Source of the DNA: Pseudovirgaria hyperparasitica
Lineage: Eukaryota; Ascomycota; Dothideomycetes; Acrospermales; Acrospermaceae
DNA: 64,000 bases
Assembly (NCBI RefSeq): GCF_010093815.1
Contig: NW_022985560.1
Coordinates: forward strand, 1,299,501 to 1,363,500
Reading direction: 5' to 3'
Under the pieces are notes generated by a model. It searched no databases. It saw only the letters and a list, made by a program, of their open reading frames with translations, and was not told the DNA's origin. Below, piece after piece: positions 1,266 through 53,922 of this stretch. The position numbers and the translations under genes are program-made. The stretch's first letter is position 1. The number at the start of each line of letters is the position of its first letter.

Positions 1266-2877
1266 CTACTCTATCCGAGTCAAAGTCTCTTCCTCCAGTT
1301 TCATCATGACAATCAATCCAATCGCAAGGGCATAAAATCCTGCTGAGACGAAATATGGTAAACCTAGTGCGATGCCGCCGGTTTCAATGCCATGAACCCA
1401 CAAAACAGCCATTAAAGGTGCACCAATAAGGGATCCAGCCGTTTTCGATAGCATCGCCAAGGAGAAAAGCTGTGTCGGAGTGTGTGCATCGGAAGAGCGA
1501 CTTGAAGAAGACACGATGCCAGACACACAAGACGCGCGAAGGAGTGAAAACTTGAAAACCGGAAGCGCGGACCCCATGGCATAGATTATAAGGCTGGTTA
1601 GAAGTTGCCAGAAGGCAAAAGAAAGGCCGATGCCAAACGCGCCTATGACCGATATGATGAGGCTTAGGATTGCAGCAACTGAGTTCAGTCCCACTGGCCT
1701 AAAAACATGCGAAGCGAGGTACATGAGAGAAGGAACGAGAGTCGTAAGGAGAAAGAGGTTGAAGATGGACTTAACGGATAGAAGGAAGCCTGCGGCCGTG
1801 AAGGTCCAGCCATATCGAAGGGAAATATATTGGACGAGTAGATACGTGTTGGAACCAGCCACTGCCGTGAGGACGAAGCTACTGAGTAGTAGCCGTATGT
1901 TGATATGCAAAGGATGGAAGATTAGTTTAAAGATCTCATGAAATTCATGCAATATTGCAAGATGCATAGGCAAGTCCTCGTCCCGTTTCAACGAGGATTG
2001 CGTGGTCTCGGTAGATAGTGCTGGAATCAAGGGATTTGATTCTGATCCTCTGATCGGATGAAGTTGATGAACATAGTCTGGGATATGTTTGATCGTCATA
2101 GATGCGGAGGCAAGAAGCAGAAGACCTATCCCAAGAGGTAGCCAGACGACAAGTTTCATTGTAGCTGCCGAGGTAGCTGGACCGAGAAGATTGACAACGT
2201 AACTGATTGAACTGATCCATGCAAGATGTGTTGCTCTAAATTACAGTCAGCGAGTGATCGCAGACCTAGGAGGGTATCCATGCCTCTGGGTATTGTCATC
2301 GGACATGTTCGCTGTAAGTGTATATATGATCGTTTCAAAAACGCATGCTCCACCAAACACTGACAAGAACGGAGCAGCGATGATTGATGTCGTCGGGACG
2401 ACTCTGTCAAAGTAATTGAACAAGGCTGGCCAAAGAAGAAGGCAAGCGCGCGGTATCAGATTGATATATAGCACCAATTTTGCGCCGTAGCGAGCAGCCA
2501 CGAAGCTCATCGGGATCGTTACTAAAAAGTCTAACAACACGTTACTTCCGGCTAAAGATAAGAGAGCCCGGATATATCTCACCTCCAATAGTCCAAGTAG
2601 TCTCCATTATACCCTGTAAAGTTGCTAGTCTCGACTGTATCTGGCTGATTTTACACATAGATTCATCAATTGTGCCGTCTGCCTGAACGTGACTTGGATC
2701 GTACTCCTGGTAGTATTCGCGACATAATCTTTGCTCGATGATCTTATTGAGTGGTAGCGTGTAGAGGCCTTGTGCGAAATTAACAAAGAGCAGGAGAACT
2801 AGTAGAGCTTTCAGTGGTCGTTGCGCGTTGCCCTTCCTTTCTCGGACTGTACCCATTCCGGGTGCACTGGAAGACAT
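1266..2877 (-). CDS. MFS transporter (fungal, about 12 membrane segments)
   Basis: Major facilitator superfamily permease in three exons: 2583-2877, 2284-2530 and 1266-2235, giving 503 residues. The N-terminus is short and hydrophilic and leads into a first hydrophobic segment (LLVLLLFVNFAQ). A long loop with two Cys follows, then a block resembling MFS motif A (DFLVTIPMSFVAARYGAKLV). Many hydrophobic segments fill the C-terminal exon. Intron 1 (2531-2582) is GTGAGA...TTAG. Intron 2 is best read as 2236-2283 with a GC donor (GCATGG...TTTAG), which gives a smooth QRATHLAWISS junction; the GT alternative leaves only 30 bp. The substrate is unknown. Fungal MFS proteins of this type often sit near accessory or secondary-metabolism genes, but none is seen here apart from the HET gene and the repeat protein that flank it. 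Confidence 0.8.
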
Positions 2878-3508
2878 AGCTCCTTAGCTCCATCAAACGC
2901 AGATTGGCTTCTGTATACGTGTTTAGAGAGAGTATATCTTGCTTTCATTCATCATGGTGTAGGATTCACTGGCGGTCGGATGAAAGATGTCTTTTCAAAG
3001 CCGGAGTCTGACGTGCAAGATATCCTGAGATCGGGTATGCATTACTGCCTCAGGCATCATGACTGATACAGTAGATCGCAACCTCGGACGCAGTGGGTAC
3101 TATTACCATGTCAGCAACCAACGAGTGCCCTTAGTACATCGAAAGTCAGACATTATGACGTATTGATACAAAATGACTACGAATACAGCTGGCTCTGAGA
3201 ACGTCGATCCTGGTGCTGTGCTGAATATCTATTCAACGTGGATCATAATTTATGTGTGAAACAAACAAATCAGTGTATAGAGTTCATAATCGTGTTGAAT
3301 ATTCATAATAGCTTGAGTTAAATGACATGATTCGTTATGTCGTAGCATCGCAAAATGCGGTGCATACATGTAGGATATCGTAGGAAAGGAAACGCAACAC
3401 AATGCTGAAAGACAAAAACACGTCAACAAACAACTGCAATCAAAGAAAGAAAACACATCTTAACAACATAGAAAACCTCTGTATCCCGTCCTTTTCTTGT
3501 ACAAGTTT
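2878..3508. other. Intergenic, no gene seen
   Basis: About 630 bases between two genes on the minus strand. It holds the presumed MFS promoter and the 3' region of the repeat protein. The part near 3170-3480 is AT-rich. I see no convincing coding sequence. Confidence 0.5.
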
Positions 3509-4630
3509 TTACGCAGTAGTGGTTGGTGTCGCAACATCGGAGAGCGAAGTTTCCGCAGCAGACACCGCGCTGCTAGTAACCGAGACCGCAGCTGATTCAC
3601 TAGTCGCAGCGACGCTGGTGGCATCAGAGGTTGCCAGGGGAGTTGATGTATCCGCAGTCAATGGCATAGACGCCGTAGTCAGAGCGTCTGATGCTAGCGA
3701 GCTGTCTGTGGCGACTGCAGACAAGGTCGATGTAAGCGCCGCGACAGTCGAAGTTGCATTGTCCTGGCGTCTGTAGAGATTACCAGTGCCAATGAAAGTA
3801 AGAGAAGCAGACGAAAGAGTCAGCCCAGAGATTGGGAGAGAAGTAAGACTCGTTAAAGTTGGTACGTCGACTTGACGTCTCATATCCAGTGCAGATGTCA
3901 GGTTGGTTGCAGGCGTCGGGAGGGGATCCAGAGTGGTGAGACTCAAAGATGGTAGAGACACTGTTGTCAAGATGCTTGTGGGCAGATCGACCTGTCTCTT
4001 GGCTTCAACACTGGTTACTGAATTGCTGGCTGGTAGGAGTGTTGTTGGTAAATCGCTAGGTAAGGATAGTGATGGTAGTATGCTTGTAGGAAGATCGACC
4101 TGTCTCTTGGCTCCTACGCCGGTTGCCGAGTCGCTGATTGCAAGTATTGTCGTTGGTAGGTCGCTGGGTAAGGACAGGGATGGTAATATGCTCGTAGGAA
4201 GATCGACCTGTCTCTTGGCTCCAACACCGGTTACTGAGTTGCTGGCTGGGAGGAGTGTTGTTGGCAAGTCGCTGGGTAAGGATAGCGATGGTAATATGCT
4301 CGTAGGGAGATCGACCTGTCTCTTTGCTCCCACATTGGATGCCGACTCGCTCAGTGGAAGAAGAGTTGGGACGTTGCTGGGCAAGGACAAACTCGGCAGA
4401 ACAATAGTAAGCTGGCGCTTACCAAAGACCTCGTCGTTCGTCCGACGGGGAAGTGGGAACGCAGTTGGAGAACCAGAGAATTGTGTTCCCGTCAGATCAG
4501 AGGGAAAGCTTGACAAGACTGAAGATGGAATGTCGCCCTGACGCTTTCCGTGTACATGCCCATGCAGGTGATGAGGAATTGCTGTAGCAATTCCAGAGCA
4601 CAGAGTGATGAACAAGATTGATGAATGCAT
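3509..4630 (-). CDS. Secreted Kex2-processed repeat protein (repellent-like)
   Basis: A 373-residue intronless protein with an N-terminal secretion signal (hydrophobic ILFITLCSGIATA). Dibasic sites followed by Gln recur at KR29-30, 71-72, 103-104, 139-140, 175-176 and 211-212, and at RR251-252 and 287-288; RR62-63 is followed by Thr. The three central units, starting at residues 103, 139 and 175, are exactly 36 residues and nearly identical (QVDLPTSILPSLSLPSDLPT plus a variable tail). The tail after 289 is Ser/Thr/Ala-rich and likely O-glycosylated. Kex2-type cleavage in the Golgi should release several peptides of about 34 residues with N-terminal Gln, which can cyclise to pyroglutamate. The layout resembles the repellent precursor Rep1 of Ustilago and other Kex2-processed repeat proteins. 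It lacks a recognisable alpha-pheromone core, and no DUF3328-type dikaritin maturase is visible in the window. Function is unknown; a wall or surface role is an inference. Confidence 0.8.
   Translation of the reverse strand: MHSSILFITLCSGIATAIPHHLHGHVHGKRQGDIPSSVLSSFPSDLTGTQFSGSPTAFPLPRRTNDEVFGKRQLTIVLPSLSLPSNVPTLLPLSESASNVGAKRQVDLPTSILPSLSLPSDLPTTLLPASNSVTGVGAKRQVDLPTSILPSLSLPSDLPTTILAISDSATGVGAKRQVDLPTSILPSLSLPSDLPTTLLPASNSVTSVEAKRQVDLPTSILTTVSLPSLSLTTLDPLPTPATNLTSALDMRRQVDVPTLTSLTSLPISGLTLSSASLTFIGTGNLYRRQDNATSTVAALTSTLSAVATDSSLASDALTTASMPLTADTSTPLATSDATSVAATSESAAVSVTSSAVSAAETSLSDVATPTTTA
4001..4324 (-). repeat. Three tandem 108-bp coding repeats
   Basis: Three direct repeats of 108 bp (4217-4324, 4109-4216, 4001-4108) each encode one 36-residue unit that starts with KRQVDL. 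Units 1 and 3 resemble each other more closely (TTLLPASNSVT) than unit 2 (TTILAISDSAT). This pattern fits recombination or conversion among units. Diverged units flank both sides (about 4325-4420 and 3881-4000). Confidence 0.85.
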
Positions 4631-4754
4631 CCTGGAGAAGTGCTTCTTTGTCAGGCTTAGAGGATTGCGAGAAATATGATTGTAAGATGAGGTTGTCAGA
4701 TGTGCTTGTAAGGTTCAGAAGTTGATACCTATCATTGTTTGGTGGCATGCCCTT

Positions 4755-4760
4755 CTTATA
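4755..4760 (-). promoter_or_regulatory. TATA-like box of the repeat protein gene
   Basis: TATAAG on the minus strand, about 125 bases before the ATG at 4630. Position and sequence fit a core promoter; no experimental support is available. Confidence 0.3.
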
Positions 4761-5980
4761 TCTGGTAGATGTTTACATGACTTACTCGCGATCATCACGA
4801 TGGCAACAACAATAGTATCAAGCGTGGTGGTCAAAATGCACAATGATGTCGACGTACATGAAGAGGTTGGGGAGTCCGTCTTCAGAATATACTCTCCTTG
4901 GGCCGATTCCCCAGGTTGTGCTTCGTTTGTGTGTACAGCCATTTCTCAAATGACCATAGTATACACGTGGGTTATGGGAATTTGGGGTTGCATCTTGGAT
5001 GTAGAATACTGCGTGGCTGACGTGTTGTGGCGGAGAATATGCAAGTAACATGTGAATCGAAGATGATTGCCGGTATCTGTAGCGCACGTAGGAATACAAA
5101 ACGTTCCGACAGACGAGGCGAAAATGGTGGAAGTTGTGGTGGCTGGTATCATAACAGCTCTAGTCGGATAAATCGTTCGGGGAGTTCACAATCTCCCATC
5201 GCGATGTATTTTCCAGCCACCGTTTTTTAGTTGACAGACAGACTGTCTTGAGAATACCCAGTTTCAAGTCGAAACTCACTGCGGACTCATCTTGAGGTCT
5301 GTTGATGACTTTTGAACCAGTTCCTAGCACCATAAACCACGTCGGGGCGAGCTCGTGTCAGGTTATGTTGCAATGATATTCTGAGCTGCTGATACGCGGG
5401 ATTCTTTGGGCATTGAAGTGATGGTTACCGTACTTTCACCTCACATCTCTCACCCTGTTCGATATCTCTTCAAGTATCAACGATCTCGGAACTAGACGTT
5501 CTCGTTCAAGCACGACAGCGCAACCTTTATTTCAAATCCAGAAGTACTTCTTCGAGTTTATCGGTGCCTATCTGGACAAAGAGACGCAATGCCATCAGCT
5601 ACAACGGCTATCGTTCAGAGCCATTGAACGCGTAACCTTTCCTATATGAATTCCTCTGTGTTTTATATAGCATAGCACTTGTCCATGCACAAAGACGAAT
5701 ACAGTCTCTTAGCTTCAAAGAGGCTCTCATCGATGGGAACCTGCGGCTCCGTGACTCCGCTGCTCTGAGTGGCACGCAGACACGGTCGGCTGGGACACGG
5801 CGCGGGTGCTCGACGCAACCTTGGAGTGATCGGTTTAAGACGACAGATTCATCACGAAGCATAATGATATCAAGAGGTCTCTCAATTGAGGCGCTGGTCC
5901 CGGGTCAGAGATGATATAACACTACGCTCACATGTTTGATGCCATCACTATCTTGAACGTCGCTCGGAGGTGATGCGGCG

Positions 5981-6892: not shown

Positions 6893-9800
6893 CTACTTTT
6901 TTCTCTCCGACAACATCTCCTTGATCAGATCCTTCTCACCACTCTCCTCTACCATGCTAGCAAAGGCGCCTTTGCCTCCATCTTTTTGCATTAGCACTTC
7001 TGGTCTATCATACTCTAGAATCTTGCCATCTCCCAGGACACAGACGCGGTCAAAATCAGCTATGGTTGATAGTCGATGAGCAATCACGAGCAGAGTGCTA
7101 TCGCTAAATTGCTCGCGGACACTCTGTTGAATGAGCGTGTCAGTCGCTTTATCAACGGCAGACGTCGCCTCATCCAAGATAAGGATCTTCGGTCTATGTA
7201 AGATAGCTCGGGCGAGACACAGGAGTTGTCGTTGGCCCTGGGAGAGATTCGAGCCTGACTCTGCAATCGTGGTGGAGAGTGATGCGAAGGGATTCGTGTT
7301 AGCTGTTGAGACTGTCGGCTCAGTTGGTCCAGACGTCGTCGGCGGTGTACTGGACCCAGAGTCATTTCCTTTGATGAGATGGACCCGTTCGAGTGCTTCT
7401 CGCAAGGCATCGTCACTATGCTCGCTGAACGGATCCAAGTTCGAGCGGACAGTTCCAGAGAATAACACCGGGTCCTGTGGTATGATGGCTAGCCGGCTTC
7501 GGAGATCCTTCAGTCGCATAGTCGCAATGTCAATACCGTCAATGACAATGCGGCCCTCTCGTGCAGCCAGAAAACGGAAAAGGGCAAGCGCCATAGATGA
7601 CTTGCCAGCACCAGTCCTTCCGACGATGGCGCATCTTTCGTTAGGCTCTATTCCCAGCGTAATACCGCGCAGAACAGGTGGTAGATCTTCCGCGTATCCA
7701 ACTACAAGATTGTCAATTTCAAGCCGCCCTTTGCTAGGCCAAGCAGCCGGAGCTGGCTTTCCACCCTGGTCTTCGATCTCAGTCTCAGTGTATTCCTGTA
7801 TCCGCTCGACGGAGTTCATGGCCATCTCCGTGATACCAAATTGTCGCAACAGCCAGTAAATCGCGTCGGTGTACTGCAGGGCAAAGCTGAGGGCAAATCC
7901 TGCTAATGAAGGATCGAAATCCTTTATGCTAGTCACAATGACAGCTATGATTACGGCAAATATGGCGCCGATCAAACCCAACCTTATCGAGAGCCACCTA
8001 TTCATCCCAGCTATGTAGTAGCTCGTAGCACCATAGACATCAATCTTAGCAAACATGTTTGTCTTATAGATATCCTGCTTCTTGAATGCTCGAATGGTTC
8101 CGAGTCCAGTTAGTGTCGTACCAAGGATCTCGAAAATGGGGCTCTTTGCAATACTCTCAAGTCGTTTCATCTCGCGGGTACCGTCCAAGTAGTAGAGAGA
8201 GTATCTCAAGGAAATAGCAATGAGAAGGAACGAAAACACCACAACGTATGGCGAAACAAGAATGCTAGAGATGATGTTAGGATAGCCGACGAGTTTGAAA
8301 TCTATAGCTTACCCGGCCACAATGATCCCCAAGATGACAAGTGTTTGATCAAAGACGGTACACATTGTCCAGCAGAGCTCACTGTCGACGATGGTAAAGT
8401 CTGATGTAAAGCGGTTCAAGATTCTGCCCAGAGGCATTGTGTCCCACCATCTCAACTTGGCGCGTAGAACTCGGTAAGTGAGATCCTCGTATAGCTTTTG
8501 ACTGGCACGAATTGATCCAGTGAACATGAAAATTGACCTTCCAATTCCAGCGATCAAGAGCAGACATGCAAAGCCAAAGTAAATGCCAAGGTAGTACTTA
8601 AGGTTTGCGTCAACTTCTCGTATACGCATCGTCTGATTCGAAGTTCCCGCGATCATGAGCTGTTGTTGATGAGAAATATGGTATGCTTTTGGTACTTGCT
8701 CTGTCTCGTAACTCTGAGTCCAGAGTTTGACCCACCACGACTACATGAAATGTTAGCAAGTCAACCCTTTGAAGCTTCATTCGGTATAATCTGACCTGAC
8801 CGAGTCTTAAAACTTCCAGGGCTATCAGAACACCAGCATAGCCCGCCCAGAACCAGAGGTAACCACTTGCTTTCCAATAGCGCACATATATGTTGAAGGC
8901 AATGCGCCCAATCTGCCTTGATTCGTCTTCAACAAATTTTTTCGGTACTTGTGTTGTTTTGCCGCTGTTATCCTCGTCCATGAGTCCGTTGGGCCGGATG
9001 GAGTTGGAGGATTTCCGCGCCGATGATCGACGACGATTCACAGTGTGGTTGTGCGAGGTATTAATTGACTGATACCCAGCTTCTCTATGCATGATCCCTG
9101 TCCCTTCGTTGTCGCCCTCGGCGACGACTATCGGTACGATCTCTTCGGCTTCTTCCACTGCTTCCTCGTGCACCTTGTCTTCTTCCAAGAGAATCGATTG
9201 TAGCGCGCCTGTTCGTTTAAGATGTTCAATGCTGCCAGAATACTCAACTTGGCCATTACTTAGATGCACGGCGTACTTTGCTGAGCCAACGACAAGAGAG
9301 ACGTGATGCGTGGCCAGTATTCTAGTTCTTCCAGCACCGATCTTGCCACACAATGCATTCGCAAATATGTGACGGCCAACGTGAGCATCAACGGCGCTGA
9401 AGATGTCGTCCATGATCAGAACACCTGCTCTTGAGTACAACGCTCTTGCCAGTGTGATTCGCCATTTCTGTCCGCCAGAGACATTCACTCCATTGGCACC
9501 AATCTCTGTCTCATCCCCATCACTCAGTATCTTGCGATCCTGAGTCAACGCACACGCATCGACAACGCTTTCGTATCTTTCTTTGTCAAAAGGCAGTCTG
9601 AAGAGGATGTTCTCCTTGAAGGTCCCGTTCTCAATCCATGGCTGTTGACTAACGAATGCAAGTGTTCCAGGCTGTATCCAGTTTGTCTGATTCAGTATTT
9701 CATTGTCGTTACAGTCCCCTGGTGTACCCTTAGGAACAGTGATGGCTCCCGAGATTAGGTCCGCTTCACCAAGTATCGCAGCCAACATTAAGCTCTTTCC

Positions 9801-11675
9801 ACTTCCTGTGCCTCCCGCGATGATGCTGAGCTCATTGTTTGGAAACGACAAGTTAGCTTTTCGAATTATGAACTCTCTGTTCGCGTCTTGATCGTCGACA
9901 GGCCAAGCAAAGTCAGCATCCTGAAACTCAATCGATTCGCCTGGAGTTGTAACTTCTGGGATCTCTGGAGCGTGTAGATACTTCTCCACTCGTTTCAGGC
10001 TTACCCAGGCATCGATTGCGTTGGTTGCAAGTTCTGGAATCAGAGCAAGCGTGACCTGAATACTATTGAGCACACCCATTGTTGTGAACGCGACGCTGGG
10101 TAACAGCTCGCCATACACGAGTGCATGAACTGCCAATGCAACGGCAGACAGCATTATAGGCCCAAACAGCCAACAAAACATAAGACCAATGTCAGCCCTG
10201 AACGACCTCCACTGCTGGCTCAGTTCTTCGTCTCGTACTTCTTTAATTTGACTTTGAACTCTGTCCTCGTGGGCTGCAAACTTGACATGCCGAATCCCCT
10301 TCAATATTTCGGTTACAACAGCAAGTTTTCGATCGCGAACTTTCATGACATCATTCTGTGCTTTTGCGTATTTTTTCGAGAAGAAAGTGTTGAGAGGCAT
10401 ACTCAGAATTTGGACAGTTAGCCCTGCGAGCAATGCTTGCCATCCCACGAGGTATCCAAGGAGGCTAAAAGATATCAAGATTTTGCAGAATGCGCCGAAG
10501 AACCAGTTGTTCACTAGGGCAAAGTATGATACCCTGAAAACGTCGACTCCGACTAAATTGACCGTTCCTTGTTGTGTCTTGTTCTCGGCATCCTCGCTCT
10601 CAAGCCCTGACACATCGGCCACCCCCTTGACATCTTTACGTCGCAAAGCTTTGGCATAGACAAGAGCTGACAAGTGGGTACGAAAGGGAACTTGGATGTA
10701 GGAGTATGAGATGTACCAACCGACGCTCTCAACGAATTGTGTTAGGAAGAGAAAAACGCCGAGCAGGACAACCCACAACGCGATCGGTGCACTCTGGTCT
10801 CCGCTTGCATGTCGGCTCTCTAATGTTCGCAACAACATGAGCATGGCAACAGAAGGCGCTTGGACTGTAATCGCATCCATGAATGTCATGAAATACTGTG
10901 CGGCTAGCGCCCCACGATGGCAGCGAAGTAGCAGACGAAACAAGGTCTGGTCAGGCTGGAGCTCAGGGTGTGTATTGAGAAGCCAGCTGGATCTGCTTTG
11001 GTATCCCAATATGGGTACATCGTCCATTGTCAGCCAGCTCTTGGCACGCACCAAATCCACGAGCTCAGCCATCCAGGTGAAAGTCAGCCTGTTCAACAAG
11101 GAAACTGTCCGTTCCCCATCCACATTTTTGCCTCCCAGAAACACTTTAGGACGTCTTGGAACTAGCATACCAGAGACAAATGCAGCAATCGAGCAAAGCA
11201 CATCAACGAGAAGCAATGCCTTTACTGTCCGTCCGTTCCATTGGGTGTAAAGCAAGCTCGCGGTAATGGCCACAATAGCATGACTGAGAGCGGTGTATGC
11301 AGAGCTGTTGAAGCGTCGAATCGGATTTCGTTCTAGAGCAACGTTGATGCCCTGTATCAGAATTGCAAAGTGTTCGCCTGCATGGAGCCATGCTGGCAGA
11401 AGTATATTGTTACCATGTTTCGCAGGGGTCGAAGAGACTGCAAGTGCGAACGATGATGACAGGGCGAGGACTGAAACCACGAGCAGAGATATGATAGGAC
11501 CTTTGGCAGAAAATTGTTTCTGACTTTGTTCTGTTGCGACTCCGTCCACATCTTCGTAAAAGCCACTCCCTTTTTCAGATTTCCTACGCCGGGCAATGTT
11601 GATGGCAGCAAGAAGACTAGGAAGGCCGATCAGCGCGAAGCTTACAACTACTAGGATTGTCGTAAGCGGAAGCAT
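6893..11675 (-). CDS. ABCC-type multidrug-resistance ABC transporter
   Basis: Full-length ABC transporter of subfamily C in three exons: 8796-11675, 8313-8740 and 6893-8264, about 1559 residues. The order is an N-terminal TMD0-like hydrophobic region, TMD1, NBD1, TMD2, NBD2. NBD1 shows Walker A GGTGSGKS (about 9792-9815), signature VSGGQ (about 9470) and Walker B LIMDD, where Asp replaces the catalytic Glu, as is common in NBD1 of this subfamily. NBD2 shows VGRTGAGKSS (about 7592-7624), LSQGQ (about 7230) and a complete LILDE Walker B (about 7170). A Ser/Thr/Pro-rich insert of about 40 residues precedes the NBD2 signature. Introns are 8741-8795 and 8265-8312. An in-frame ATG at 11744 would add 23 residues; 11675 is preferred because hydrophobic sequence begins at once. 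It probably exports conjugates or drugs across the vacuolar or plasma membrane; the substrate is unknown. Confidence 0.9.
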
Positions 11676-12325
11676 TGCACTGCTGTTGGTCAAAATCAAG
11701 GCAGCTCCATGGCAACTCTGGTGAGATGGAAGATATATGGGCAAGCGTATGAGTCAGGATGAAATGATGATGGCCAGAGTTTGCGCGACAACAATGGATC
11801 AGTGCAGATGGGGGCGGATTGATGAATGATGGTAAATCTGATCAGACGCGGTGTCCGTTTGCGTCGATCTCTAACGTGAGGGGGCCGGAGAACCGCACGG
11901 TGCACCACTGGACGGGACTACAGAGACTAAAGACCCATCCATCAATTCATTTTATTTACCTAGGATGTTTACACTACATTCATAGTGAAGAATACCATGA
12001 TTCATCCATCATCTGACTTGCTTTCGCCTTTCCGGACAAGAGTAGAATGTGTCACTGCGTAGTTGTCGTAGTTACACCACCGTGGCGCATATTAGGCAAC
12101 AACGCTAGCGCTAATTAGTTTCATGGATCGGACCCGAATCTATTCCAGAAGTCGAATTCGGAACTTCATTATCGATACCGACCACTGGACACTCCCTAGA
12201 CAGATCTCCCGGTTTGCACTGTCAGATACCGATTGTTTTGGCAGTGGTGTTACTCATTAGCTATTGTGGTGTTATACATGACAATCATCAAACTCCTCTC
12301 CATGTGAAAGTGGCTCTTGCCTGGG
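11676..12325. other. Intergenic between ABC transporter and PEX2
   Basis: About 650 bases holding the ABC transporter promoter and the PEX2 3' region. A small partly palindromic stretch (GCTAGCGCTAATTAG, about 12103-12117) is visible. No gene is seen. Confidence 0.5.
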
Positions 12326-52200: not shown

Positions 52201-53559
52201 TAATATCCCAGCGCTTTTCCCACCCTCGTCCCCCTTACCGTTATGGACTCAAGAAGATCGCCAACACACAGTGTTCGGCATGTAATGCATTTTCACTGGC
52301 GCAACTCGGGTGATTGTTTTATTGAAATGGTTTTTCTATACCTAGGCTAGGGGACGATGACGATGAGCCTCAAGGGCACTCACGGGAGAGGTTGGTGGAT
52401 CTGATGTTAGATTATATATATACCCTGAATTGATTTACCGATTTTCTTTACTTTTTTTTCACTTTTGCTTGGGTGCTGTGATCGAGGTTTATTGTGATAA
52501 TATGGCATGCTTGTATGCCATGCTTCTTTCTTTGCCTATCTACCATGCTCGTTCCCATGCAACCATCCACGCCCCCGTATCCCTACCTCATGCATTACAC
52601 ATCCCCTGCACCCGTACACCACACAAACCCCCAGCAATCGTATACTGTACCATCCACGCACCACCACGCAGTCTCATGCTCGTCATGCAGCATGCTCATC
52701 ATCATAACCCCTCGCATTAGGGCGGCGCTTCTCTCCAACTGCCAAGACACTTTATCCCTGCCCTGTCCTGTCCTTTGGAAGAAGCATAGCCGCAGCCAAC
52801 TGATACAACCAAAGTAAACGAAAATAATGGCTGTGTTATGCTGGGATTGTGTTTGTTTCTGTAGCCGCTGCGTGGATATATATGGATGGACGGATCGTGG
52901 TTTCGGTCGAACTGTGCCGCAGCGATGCGTGAGTGGGGATTTTTGGCGGCTGCTATTTACTGTCTATGCACTTACTGCTATTTCAGTAGCTGGTTGCGCG
53001 GCTCTATTGCTGCTGCAAATGCACTTCGCCATCCATACATCCCTACATCCACACATCTATCCAGCTGCCAGTCATCATGCGTCCAGTACCTCATGTAATG
53101 CAACATGCAAATGCAGTCATTGCCCTTTTGGCATTCGTAATTTCTGCTGCACCCTGCCAGGTACATCTGTACTCCACCCTCGCTGCACCCTCACTCCACC
53201 ATCCAGTCATCCATCTATTCCTCGTCCATCCCTCAGCCATACATAATCCCAGCTGCCCTGGTCGCTATTATATCATATTATATTATATTCTATCATGTTA
53301 CCCCGCGCTGCTCTGCTCACGCGTCTGCCCGGTTGCTATCTATGCTGAATCTCCATGTCTATAAATCTATATCAATGATTATCCGAATCCATGCTTATCT
53401 TCATCCCTACAGGCTCACCCACGCCCGCATTACGAACACGTCCACGTCCACATCCACGTCTACATTACGACCACCTTCAAGAACACACCCACGCACGCCA
53501 TTGCGTTTGGTCGTCGTCAGCTGTATGTTTTATACTGTGCGTTGTATATTATATATTAT

Positions 53560-53713
53560 ATACTGTCTGCTCTATACTGTCTGCTCTATACTGTCTGCTC
53601 TATACTGTCTGCTCTATACTGTCTGCTATATACTATCTGCTATATACTATCTGCTATATACTATCTGCTATATACTATCTGCTATATACTATCTGCTATA
53701 TACTATCTGCTGT
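53560..53713. repeat. 14-bp minisatellite, about ten units
   Basis: CTGC anchors recur exactly every 14 bases from 53567 to 53707 (eleven anchors). The first four units read CTGCTCTATACTGT. The next six read CTGCTATATACTAT, differing at two positions. The last unit is partial and diverged. Because 14 is not a multiple of three, the repeat is unlikely to be under coding constraint. Confidence 0.9.
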
Positions 53714-53922
53714 ATACTTCTACGGTACCCTTAATGCTGTACAGAGTATACTCCATACTGTACACCGCATCCTCTGTCCCCCGTCCCCTAGTCAGTATCC
53801 TCCATCCTGCACACAGTATACCTTATACCAACCCAAAACGGGTATATGCGCGCATCCGCCTCCGCCGCTGCCGATTCTGGACTTACCAGCCAAATGAATG
53901 AATTGGATGGATGCATTGGACA

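What the first reader, a model, noticed from the sequence alone, without database searches (positions are those of the whole stretch)
3509..4630. Kex2-processed repeat precursor with three exact 36-residue units
The sequence shows a signal peptide and eight dibasic sites followed by Gln (six KR, two RR). Three central units are exactly 36 residues and nearly identical. Kex2 cleavage is known to release peptides from such precursors (Ustilago Rep1 repellents, dikaritin precursors, alpha-pheromones). The Leu/Ser/Pro units do not match pheromone cores, and no dikaritin enzyme is visible nearby, so a new surface-active or signalling peptide family is plausible. N-terminal Gln at every site suggests pyroglutamate ends.
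Basis: partly seen in the sequence, partly recalled or inferred. Interest (0 to 1): 0.75.

Follow-up and report, generated by a model that had tools for sequence, protein, structure and literature searches.

The report
Fungal precursor of repeated secreted peptides
A fungal gene encodes a secreted protein built like a string of near-identical 34-residue peptides separated by cutting sites, a known kind of fungal peptide precursor whose particular peptides had no relative in the collections that could be searched.

Summary
Window 4630..3509 (minus) encodes 373 residues: a signal-peptide-like start, eight KR/RR-Gln sites (six KR, two RR; shuffles mean 0.013, maximum 2 in 20,000) and three units of exactly 36 residues. 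A ninth dibasic site (RR-Thr) was not mentioned. The units differ mostly at silent sites (pS 0.31-0.48, pN 0.03-0.10), as expected if the peptide sequence is kept by selection. The protein meets those published criteria for Kex2-processed repeat proteins (KEPs) that I could test. Thousands of KEPs are described, so this is a new member of a known kind. The genome has a Kex2 and a glutaminyl cyclase-like exon, so trimmed, pyroglutamate-capped linear peptides of 30-38 residues are the likeliest product. The only UstYa/DUF3328 match on the contig is about 134 kb away, against a dikaritin. The peptides do not look like alpha-pheromones. No paralogue was found in the genome and no relative elsewhere, but no fungal collection could be searched, so 'new family' is untested. 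Function is inference: a Rep1-like surface role resembles it best, weakly supported.

The parts
3509..4630 (-). KEP-type precursor gene, 373 aa, single exon as read, stop at 3509-3511
4755..4760 (-). TATAAG, 130 bases before the ATG (possible TATA box); A at -3 of the ATG
   Evidence: consensus match only
4580..4630 (-). signal peptide, residues 1-17 (ends A-T-A)
   Evidence: most hydrophobic 19-residue window of the protein begins at residue 1 (1.44); no SignalP run
4541..4579 (-). short His-rich pro-segment, residues 18-30, ending KR
4442..4540 (-). spacer segment, residues 31-63, ends RR (followed by Thr)
4415..4441 (-). short segment, residues 64-72, ends KR
4319..4414 (-). diverged unit U0, residues 73-104 (32 aa)
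4211..4318 (-). unit U1, residues 105-140 (36 aa)
4103..4210 (-). unit U2, residues 141-176 (36 aa)
3995..4102 (-). unit U3, residues 177-212 (36 aa)
3875..3994 (-). diverged unit U4, residues 213-252 (40 aa), keeps QVDLPTSIL
3767..3874 (-). diverged unit U5, residues 253-288 (36 aa), starts QVDVPT
3512..3766 (-). Ser/Thr/Ala-rich C-terminal tail, residues 289-373 (85 aa, 44% Ser+Thr, no Lys/Arg/His), no hydrophobic GPI-type end
3972..4334 (.). 108-bp tandem array, 3.4 copies, 83% matches

Best explanation
The gene encodes a Kex2-processed repeat protein. The precursor enters the secretory pathway by its signal peptide; the fungus's Kex2 cuts after each KR/RR, a carboxypeptidase (Kex1 type, recalled, not searched for) removes the basic pair, and a glutaminyl cyclase or spontaneous cyclisation closes the N-terminal Gln to pyroglutamate. 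The result would be six related linear peptides of 30-38 residues (three near-identical ones of 34), plus N-terminal fragments and an 85-residue Ser/Thr-rich tail. The peptides are Leu/Ser/Pro/Thr-rich, free of Cys, hydrophobic on average and weakly acidic. The most likely role (about 0.35 on its own) is at the outer surface of the hypha, as for the Rep1 repellents. Shown here: the repeat anatomy, the excess of silent over replacement differences between units, the presence of Kex2 and of a glutaminyl cyclase-like exon, and no UstYa match near. Inferred: cleavage, trimming, capping, secretion and function.
For: Eight [KR]RQ sites against a shuffled mean of 0.013. KEP rules (read) met as I re-applied them, not with the authors' scripts: at least 3 similar fragments between KR/RR, repeat share 29% (3x36/373) against a 15% floor, units of 8-100 aa. 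pS 0.31-0.48 against pN 0.03-0.10 among the three units; 14 of 24 variable columns at third positions (p=0.010). One P_proprotein (Kex2 P-domain) match in the genome, its frame matching kexin at E 5.6e-178. Glutaminyl cyclase-like exon at L073: best PDB hit 'Peptide hydrolase' E 6.4e-48, then glutaminyl-peptide cyclotransferases from E 2.4e-23 on. P2' behind the eight Gln sites is Val 5, Leu 1, Asp 1, Gly 1; small (Ala, Val, Leu) or acidic P2' was over-represented at cut sites (PMC2515848 passages). Only UstYa match on the contig about 134 kb away. Unit lengths overlap those reviewed for Rep1 (34-55) and Hum3 (31-36) (PMC4617103 passages).
Against: No expression, peptide or cleavage data. Sites with good Kex2 sequence can stay uncut for structural reasons (PMC2515848 passages); Gln at P1' is not among the residues over-represented there. 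No homologue to show that the dibasic sites are conserved. Amphipathic patterning is weak: at 180 degrees 4 of 7 segments have shuffle p 0.017-0.044, uncorrected for 42 tests and three of the four nearly identical; U5 instead peaks at 140 degrees (0 of 3000 shuffles). AlphaFold2 gave pLDDT 38.5, no usable model. Six matches to class II hydrophobins at four places in the genome mean the fungus need not rely on repellents.
Confidence: 0.7

Rival explanations
1. An uncleaved secreted or wall-bound Ser/Thr/Pro-rich protein in which the dibasic pairs are structural, or cut only at the first site as a pro-peptide.
For: Long Ser/Thr-rich tail; some predicted Kex2 sites are not cut in whole proteins (PMC2515848 passages).
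Against: All 6 Lys and all 12 Arg lie in the nine dibasic pairs, hard to explain unless the pairs are used; no GPI-type hydrophobic end.
Confidence: 0.12
2. A signalling peptide precursor (sexual alpha-pheromone or another extracellular signal read by a receptor).
For: Same architecture as alpha-pheromone precursors; the genome has an alpha-pheromone receptor match (one STE2 match), and my two pheromone patterns did not find its ligand gene.
Against: 34 residues against 9-24 for alpha-pheromones (PMC6339444 Results); no Trp, no Cys outside the signal peptide, no PYGxPxG, no X-A or X-P dipeptide directly behind any of the nine sites. The pheromone patterns were narrow and not every match was read, so a missed pheromone gene is likely.
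Confidence: 0.13
3. A host- or competitor-directed secreted peptide effector.
For: Repeat-containing Kex2-cut effectors exist in plant-associated fungi (PMC4617103 and PMC8528282 passages).
Against: Organism and lifestyle unknown; nothing in the sequence points to a target.
Confidence: 0.15
4. A dikaritin-type RiPP precursor whose cores are cyclised by UstYa/DUF3328 proteins.
For: Kex2 repeat precursor with signal peptide; the genome does hold UstYa genes (27 matched pieces); two P450 gene pieces lie about 10-21 kb away.
Against: Only one UstYa match on the contig, about 134 kb away (exon-by-exon search, counts are lower bounds), while in the published survey UstYa genes lay 3.09 genes from KEPs on average (abstract); the protein has a single Tyr.
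Confidence: 0.03

Closest known systems
Kex2-processed repeat proteins (KEPs) as defined by Le Marquer 2019 and Umemura 2020
   Same: Signal peptide (by eye), at least three similar units between KR/RR sites
   Different: Cores of 34 aa, longer than the 9-24 class that was the most abundant in Dikarya except yeast-like Basidiomycota; by eye none of the conserved motifs named in the Results text occurs in it; whether it is already listed in their supplementary tables could not be checked
Ustilago maydis Rep1 repellents and Hum3
   Same: Kex2-separated units of similar length (Rep1 34-55, Hum3 31-36 aa); average hydrophobicity
   Different: Rep1 has 12 units, here six related ones. Hum3 carries a hydrophobin domain, none found here. 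No sequence comparison with Rep1 was made
Ascomycete alpha-pheromone precursors
   Same: Signal peptide, Kex2-separated repeated peptides
   Different: Length, no Cys/Trp or PYGxPxG core, no Ste13 dipeptide directly behind the sites
Dikaritin (ustiloxin-type) RiPP precursors
   Same: Signal peptide and Kex2-separated repeats
   Different: No UstYa match near, a single Tyr in the whole protein
Coprinopsis KEP 497993
   Same: Gln-starting linear peptides seen as pyroglutamate
   Different: Shorter cores, different sequence, basidiomycete

Membership tests
KEP | N-terminal signal peptide | tested here: inconclusive
   Hydrophobic start ending A-T-A, most hydrophobic stretch of the protein; SignalP not available
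KEP | At least 3 similar fragments between KR/RR sites | tested here: met
   10 fragments after residue 17, three of 36 aa sharing 29-34 of 36 residues; rule
KEP | Repeats at least 15% of the protein; units 8-100 aa | tested here: met
   29%; rules, re-applied by me, not run with the authors' scripts
KEP | No transmembrane segment besides the signal peptide | tested here: inconclusive
   highest 19-residue hydropathy after residue 30 is 1.29, in U5, against 1.44 for the signal peptide; TMHMM not run
KEP | Kex2 present in the organism | tested here: met
   one P_proprotein match, kexin E 5.6e-178
KEP | Peptides released in vivo | not testable with these tools
   needs mass spectrometry
Dikaritin RiPP | UstYa/DUF3328 gene near the precursor (survey used 15 genes) | tested here: not met
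   only match on the contig about 134 kb away; genes in between were not counted
Alpha-pheromone precursor | 9-24-residue core with two Cys or PYGxPxG, Ste13 dipeptides | tested here: not met
   34-residue cores without Cys or Trp, no XA/XP directly behind the sites (definition)
Rep1-type repellent | Kex2-separated units of 34-55 aa | tested here: met
   5 of 6 units are 36-40 aa before trimming, one is 32; after trimming 34 aa is just under the 35-53 of released Rep1 peptides
Rep1-type repellent | Amphipathic, amyloid-like surface fibrils | tested here: inconclusive
   weak 180-degree moment; no usable model
Rep1-type repellent | Sequence homology with Rep1 | not tested
   no Rep1 sequence was fetched; no fungal collection searchable

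The most novel reading that the evidence does not exclude
A repellent-type, leucine/proline-rich surface peptide system in a filamentous fungus that also has class II hydrophobins: pyroglutamate-capped 34-mers, released together with longer and shorter variants from one precursor, assemble on the hyphal wall, and the array evolves by unit duplication under purifying selection on the peptide.
Probability: 0.2. Interest if true: 0.55.

Novelty: new member of a known kind. Interest (0 to 1): 0.32.

Why it matters
KEPs are common and their functions largely unknown (PMC9769878 abstract). This one gives exact, testable masses (pyroglutamate MH+ 3343.788, 3332.772 and 3445.820 for the three units) and an internal record of selection on the peptide, so release, capping and surface activity can be tested at once. 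It does not by itself open a new kind of system.

Tried and rejected
Homologues: no relative by tblastn in viral contigs (7 pattern matches, 0 confirmed) or prokaryote genomes (203 pattern matches, 0 confirmed), none in the PDB at E up to 1; Pfam gave only chance-level matches (best E 0.096), NCBIfam none. None of these collections is a fungal one, so absence means little. Paralogues: the genome search at E up to 10 returned three rows, all inside the gene itself. Literature by letters: three strings of the unit in 0 papers; supplementary tables of the two KEP surveys could not be read. Other KEPs: 682 frames of at least 100 aa in 74 held sequences (the window and 73 loci, many overlapping) gave five rows, all this same gene; this is not a genome-wide count. 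Gene model: no GPI-type exon was apparent by eye in three frames over about 600 bases behind the stop. Structure: AlphaFold2 on the 356 residues without signal peptide and without alignment, pLDDT 38.5, rejected as meaningless; no fold search was made. Rfam: no match in window 2500-5500. Glutaminyl cyclase: the Glu_cyclase_2 family gave no match; of 14 Peptidase_M28 matches (12 with loci) I compared six loci with the PDB: L065, L066 leucine aminopeptidase type, L068, L069 glutamate carboxypeptidase type, L072 weak aminopeptidase, L073 glutaminyl cyclase type. Class I hydrophobin: no match, but no control genome rang either, so not evidence of absence. Two further papers were seen in passages and gave nothing decisive (PMC3032640; PMC10884074).

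Full report
What is there. The minus-strand frame 4630..3509 gives 373 residues. Cutting after every KR/RR gives, in order, segments of 30, 33, 9, 32, 36, 36, 36, 40, 36 and 85 residues. Eight of nine cuts expose Gln; the exception exposes Thr at residue 64. All 6 Lys and all 12 Arg sit in the nine dibasic pairs. In 20,000 shuffles of the part behind residue 17 the count of [KR]RQ averaged 0.013 and never passed 2, against 8 observed. The array is also visible as 108-bp tandem DNA.

Is it a real, selected gene. Among the three exact units the raw silent differences per silent site are 0.375, 0.309 and 0.480 and the replacement differences per replacement site 0.076, 0.025 and 0.101 (uncorrected, and the three pairs are not independent). 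14 of 24 variable columns are third codon positions (p=0.010). A TATAAG 130 bases before the ATG and A at -3 fit a promoter and start. The codon score is 0.066 for this frame, 0.00-0.03 for the best frames of two flanks on either strand, and 0.09-0.17 for the five neighbour frames on which the score was trained. Against: an open antisense frame scores 0.062, and in it the units still share 28, 33 and 25 of 36 residues. The signal-peptide start and the dibasic pattern decide for the minus frame.

What it is. Two surveys define Kex2-processed repeat proteins: at least three similar fragments between KR/RR sites in a signal-peptide protein without membrane segments, repeats at least 15% of the length (PMC6339444, pipeline section), or at least three tandem repeats of at least 8 residues between Kex2 sites, none longer than 100 (PMC7329392, detection section). 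The repeat rules are met as I re-applied them; signal peptide and membrane segments were judged by hydropathy only. By eye it carries none of the conserved peptide motifs named in the Results text that I read. Pfam and NCBIfam gave no more than chance-level matches.

The machinery. The genome (G000, 35,028,730 bases in 59 contigs) has one match to the Kex2 P-domain family, whose frame matches kexin structures over about 480 residues (E 5.6e-178). Gln-starting KEP peptides were found as pyroglutamate in Coprinopsis, and the authors think it likely enzyme-made there because a putative glutaminyl cyclase is encoded; in Pichia, without one, it must form spontaneously (PMC9769878, passages). Neurospora has two such cyclases in the ER, and most ascomycetes have one predicted gene (PMC5241404, abstract and one section). 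Here L073 encodes an exon of that type. Only that exon was compared, so its full catalytic set was not checked.

What it is not. UstYa/DUF3328: 27 matched pieces in the genome, one of them on the window's contig, at C12:1438352, about 134 kb from the gene. Alpha-pheromone: core length, composition and lack of Ste13 dipeptides do not fit. The fungus has one STE2 receptor match, but my two narrow patterns did not find its ligand: the first had 0 matches (2 for its control), the second 23 (12 for its control), of which 20 became loci; in 9 of the 20 the motif lies in a frame of at least 60 residues, each time once. Three were not read.

Function. The six related cores are 30-38 residues after trimming, without Cys, with mean hydropathy 0.39-0.69 and net charge -1 to -3. 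By size and composition the nearest functional model is Rep1 (repeats of 34-55 residues, processed into peptides that form amyloid-like fibrils on hyphae), with Hum3 beside it (PMC4617103, passages). Alternation of hydrophobic and polar residues is weak (4 of 7 segments at 180 degrees, uncorrected), and AlphaFold2 gave no usable model. The genome also has matches to class II hydrophobins at four places, so a repellent role is not needed. KEP deletions in Coprinopsis gave no detectable phenotype (PMC9769878 abstract), a warning against strong functional claims.

Surroundings. Upstream of the window lie pieces of two P450 genes and an ABC transporter, about 10-21 kb from the precursor gene; downstream, among the frames up to 26.6 kb that I scanned (8 besides the precursor and the 1266-2240 frame counted together in one call of 9), an ABC transporter gene, a Pex2/Pex12-type RING protein, an importin-11-like protein, a weak zinc-finger match and a squalene/phytoene synthase-family protein. 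The rest of the window was not scanned for domains. P450s and transporters are common; nothing seen marks a peptide-modifying cluster.

Verdict. A sound observation, correctly read as a Kex2 repeat precursor; a new member of a known kind as far as could be tested. The claim of a new family, and any function, remain open because no fungal sequence collection was searchable here.

Noticed in passing
L055:1280-1860 (G000 C40, rDNA): The only 5.8S/ITS copy found shows C-to-T and G-to-A type differences from the usual fungal sequence, such as 'cgtaataagg' for 'cgtaacaagg' (usual form recalled, changes not counted); it may be an rDNA copy altered by repeat-induced point mutation.
   Followed up: partly
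window 53557-53718: A 14-bp minisatellite with 11.6 copies and 97% matches, by eye in two blocks of slightly different units.
   Followed up: no
L032:2915-3643, L033:660-1127, L032:5365-6318: P450 Pfam matches in two frames and an ABC transporter match (PDR type by its look, recalled; ABC_trans_N just under its cut-off) about 10-21 kb upstream of the precursor gene, with no UstYa match there.
   Followed up: partly
L033:8532-9899 and window 1266-2240: Minus-strand frames without a Pfam match beside the precursor gene; the L033 part resembles the region behind the HET domain of incompatibility proteins (recalled, not tested).
   Followed up: no
window 6893-11753: Two adjacent minus-strand frames with ABC membrane and ATPase domains, probably one full-size ABC transporter gene split by an intron, 2.3 kb from the precursor gene.
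   Followed up: no
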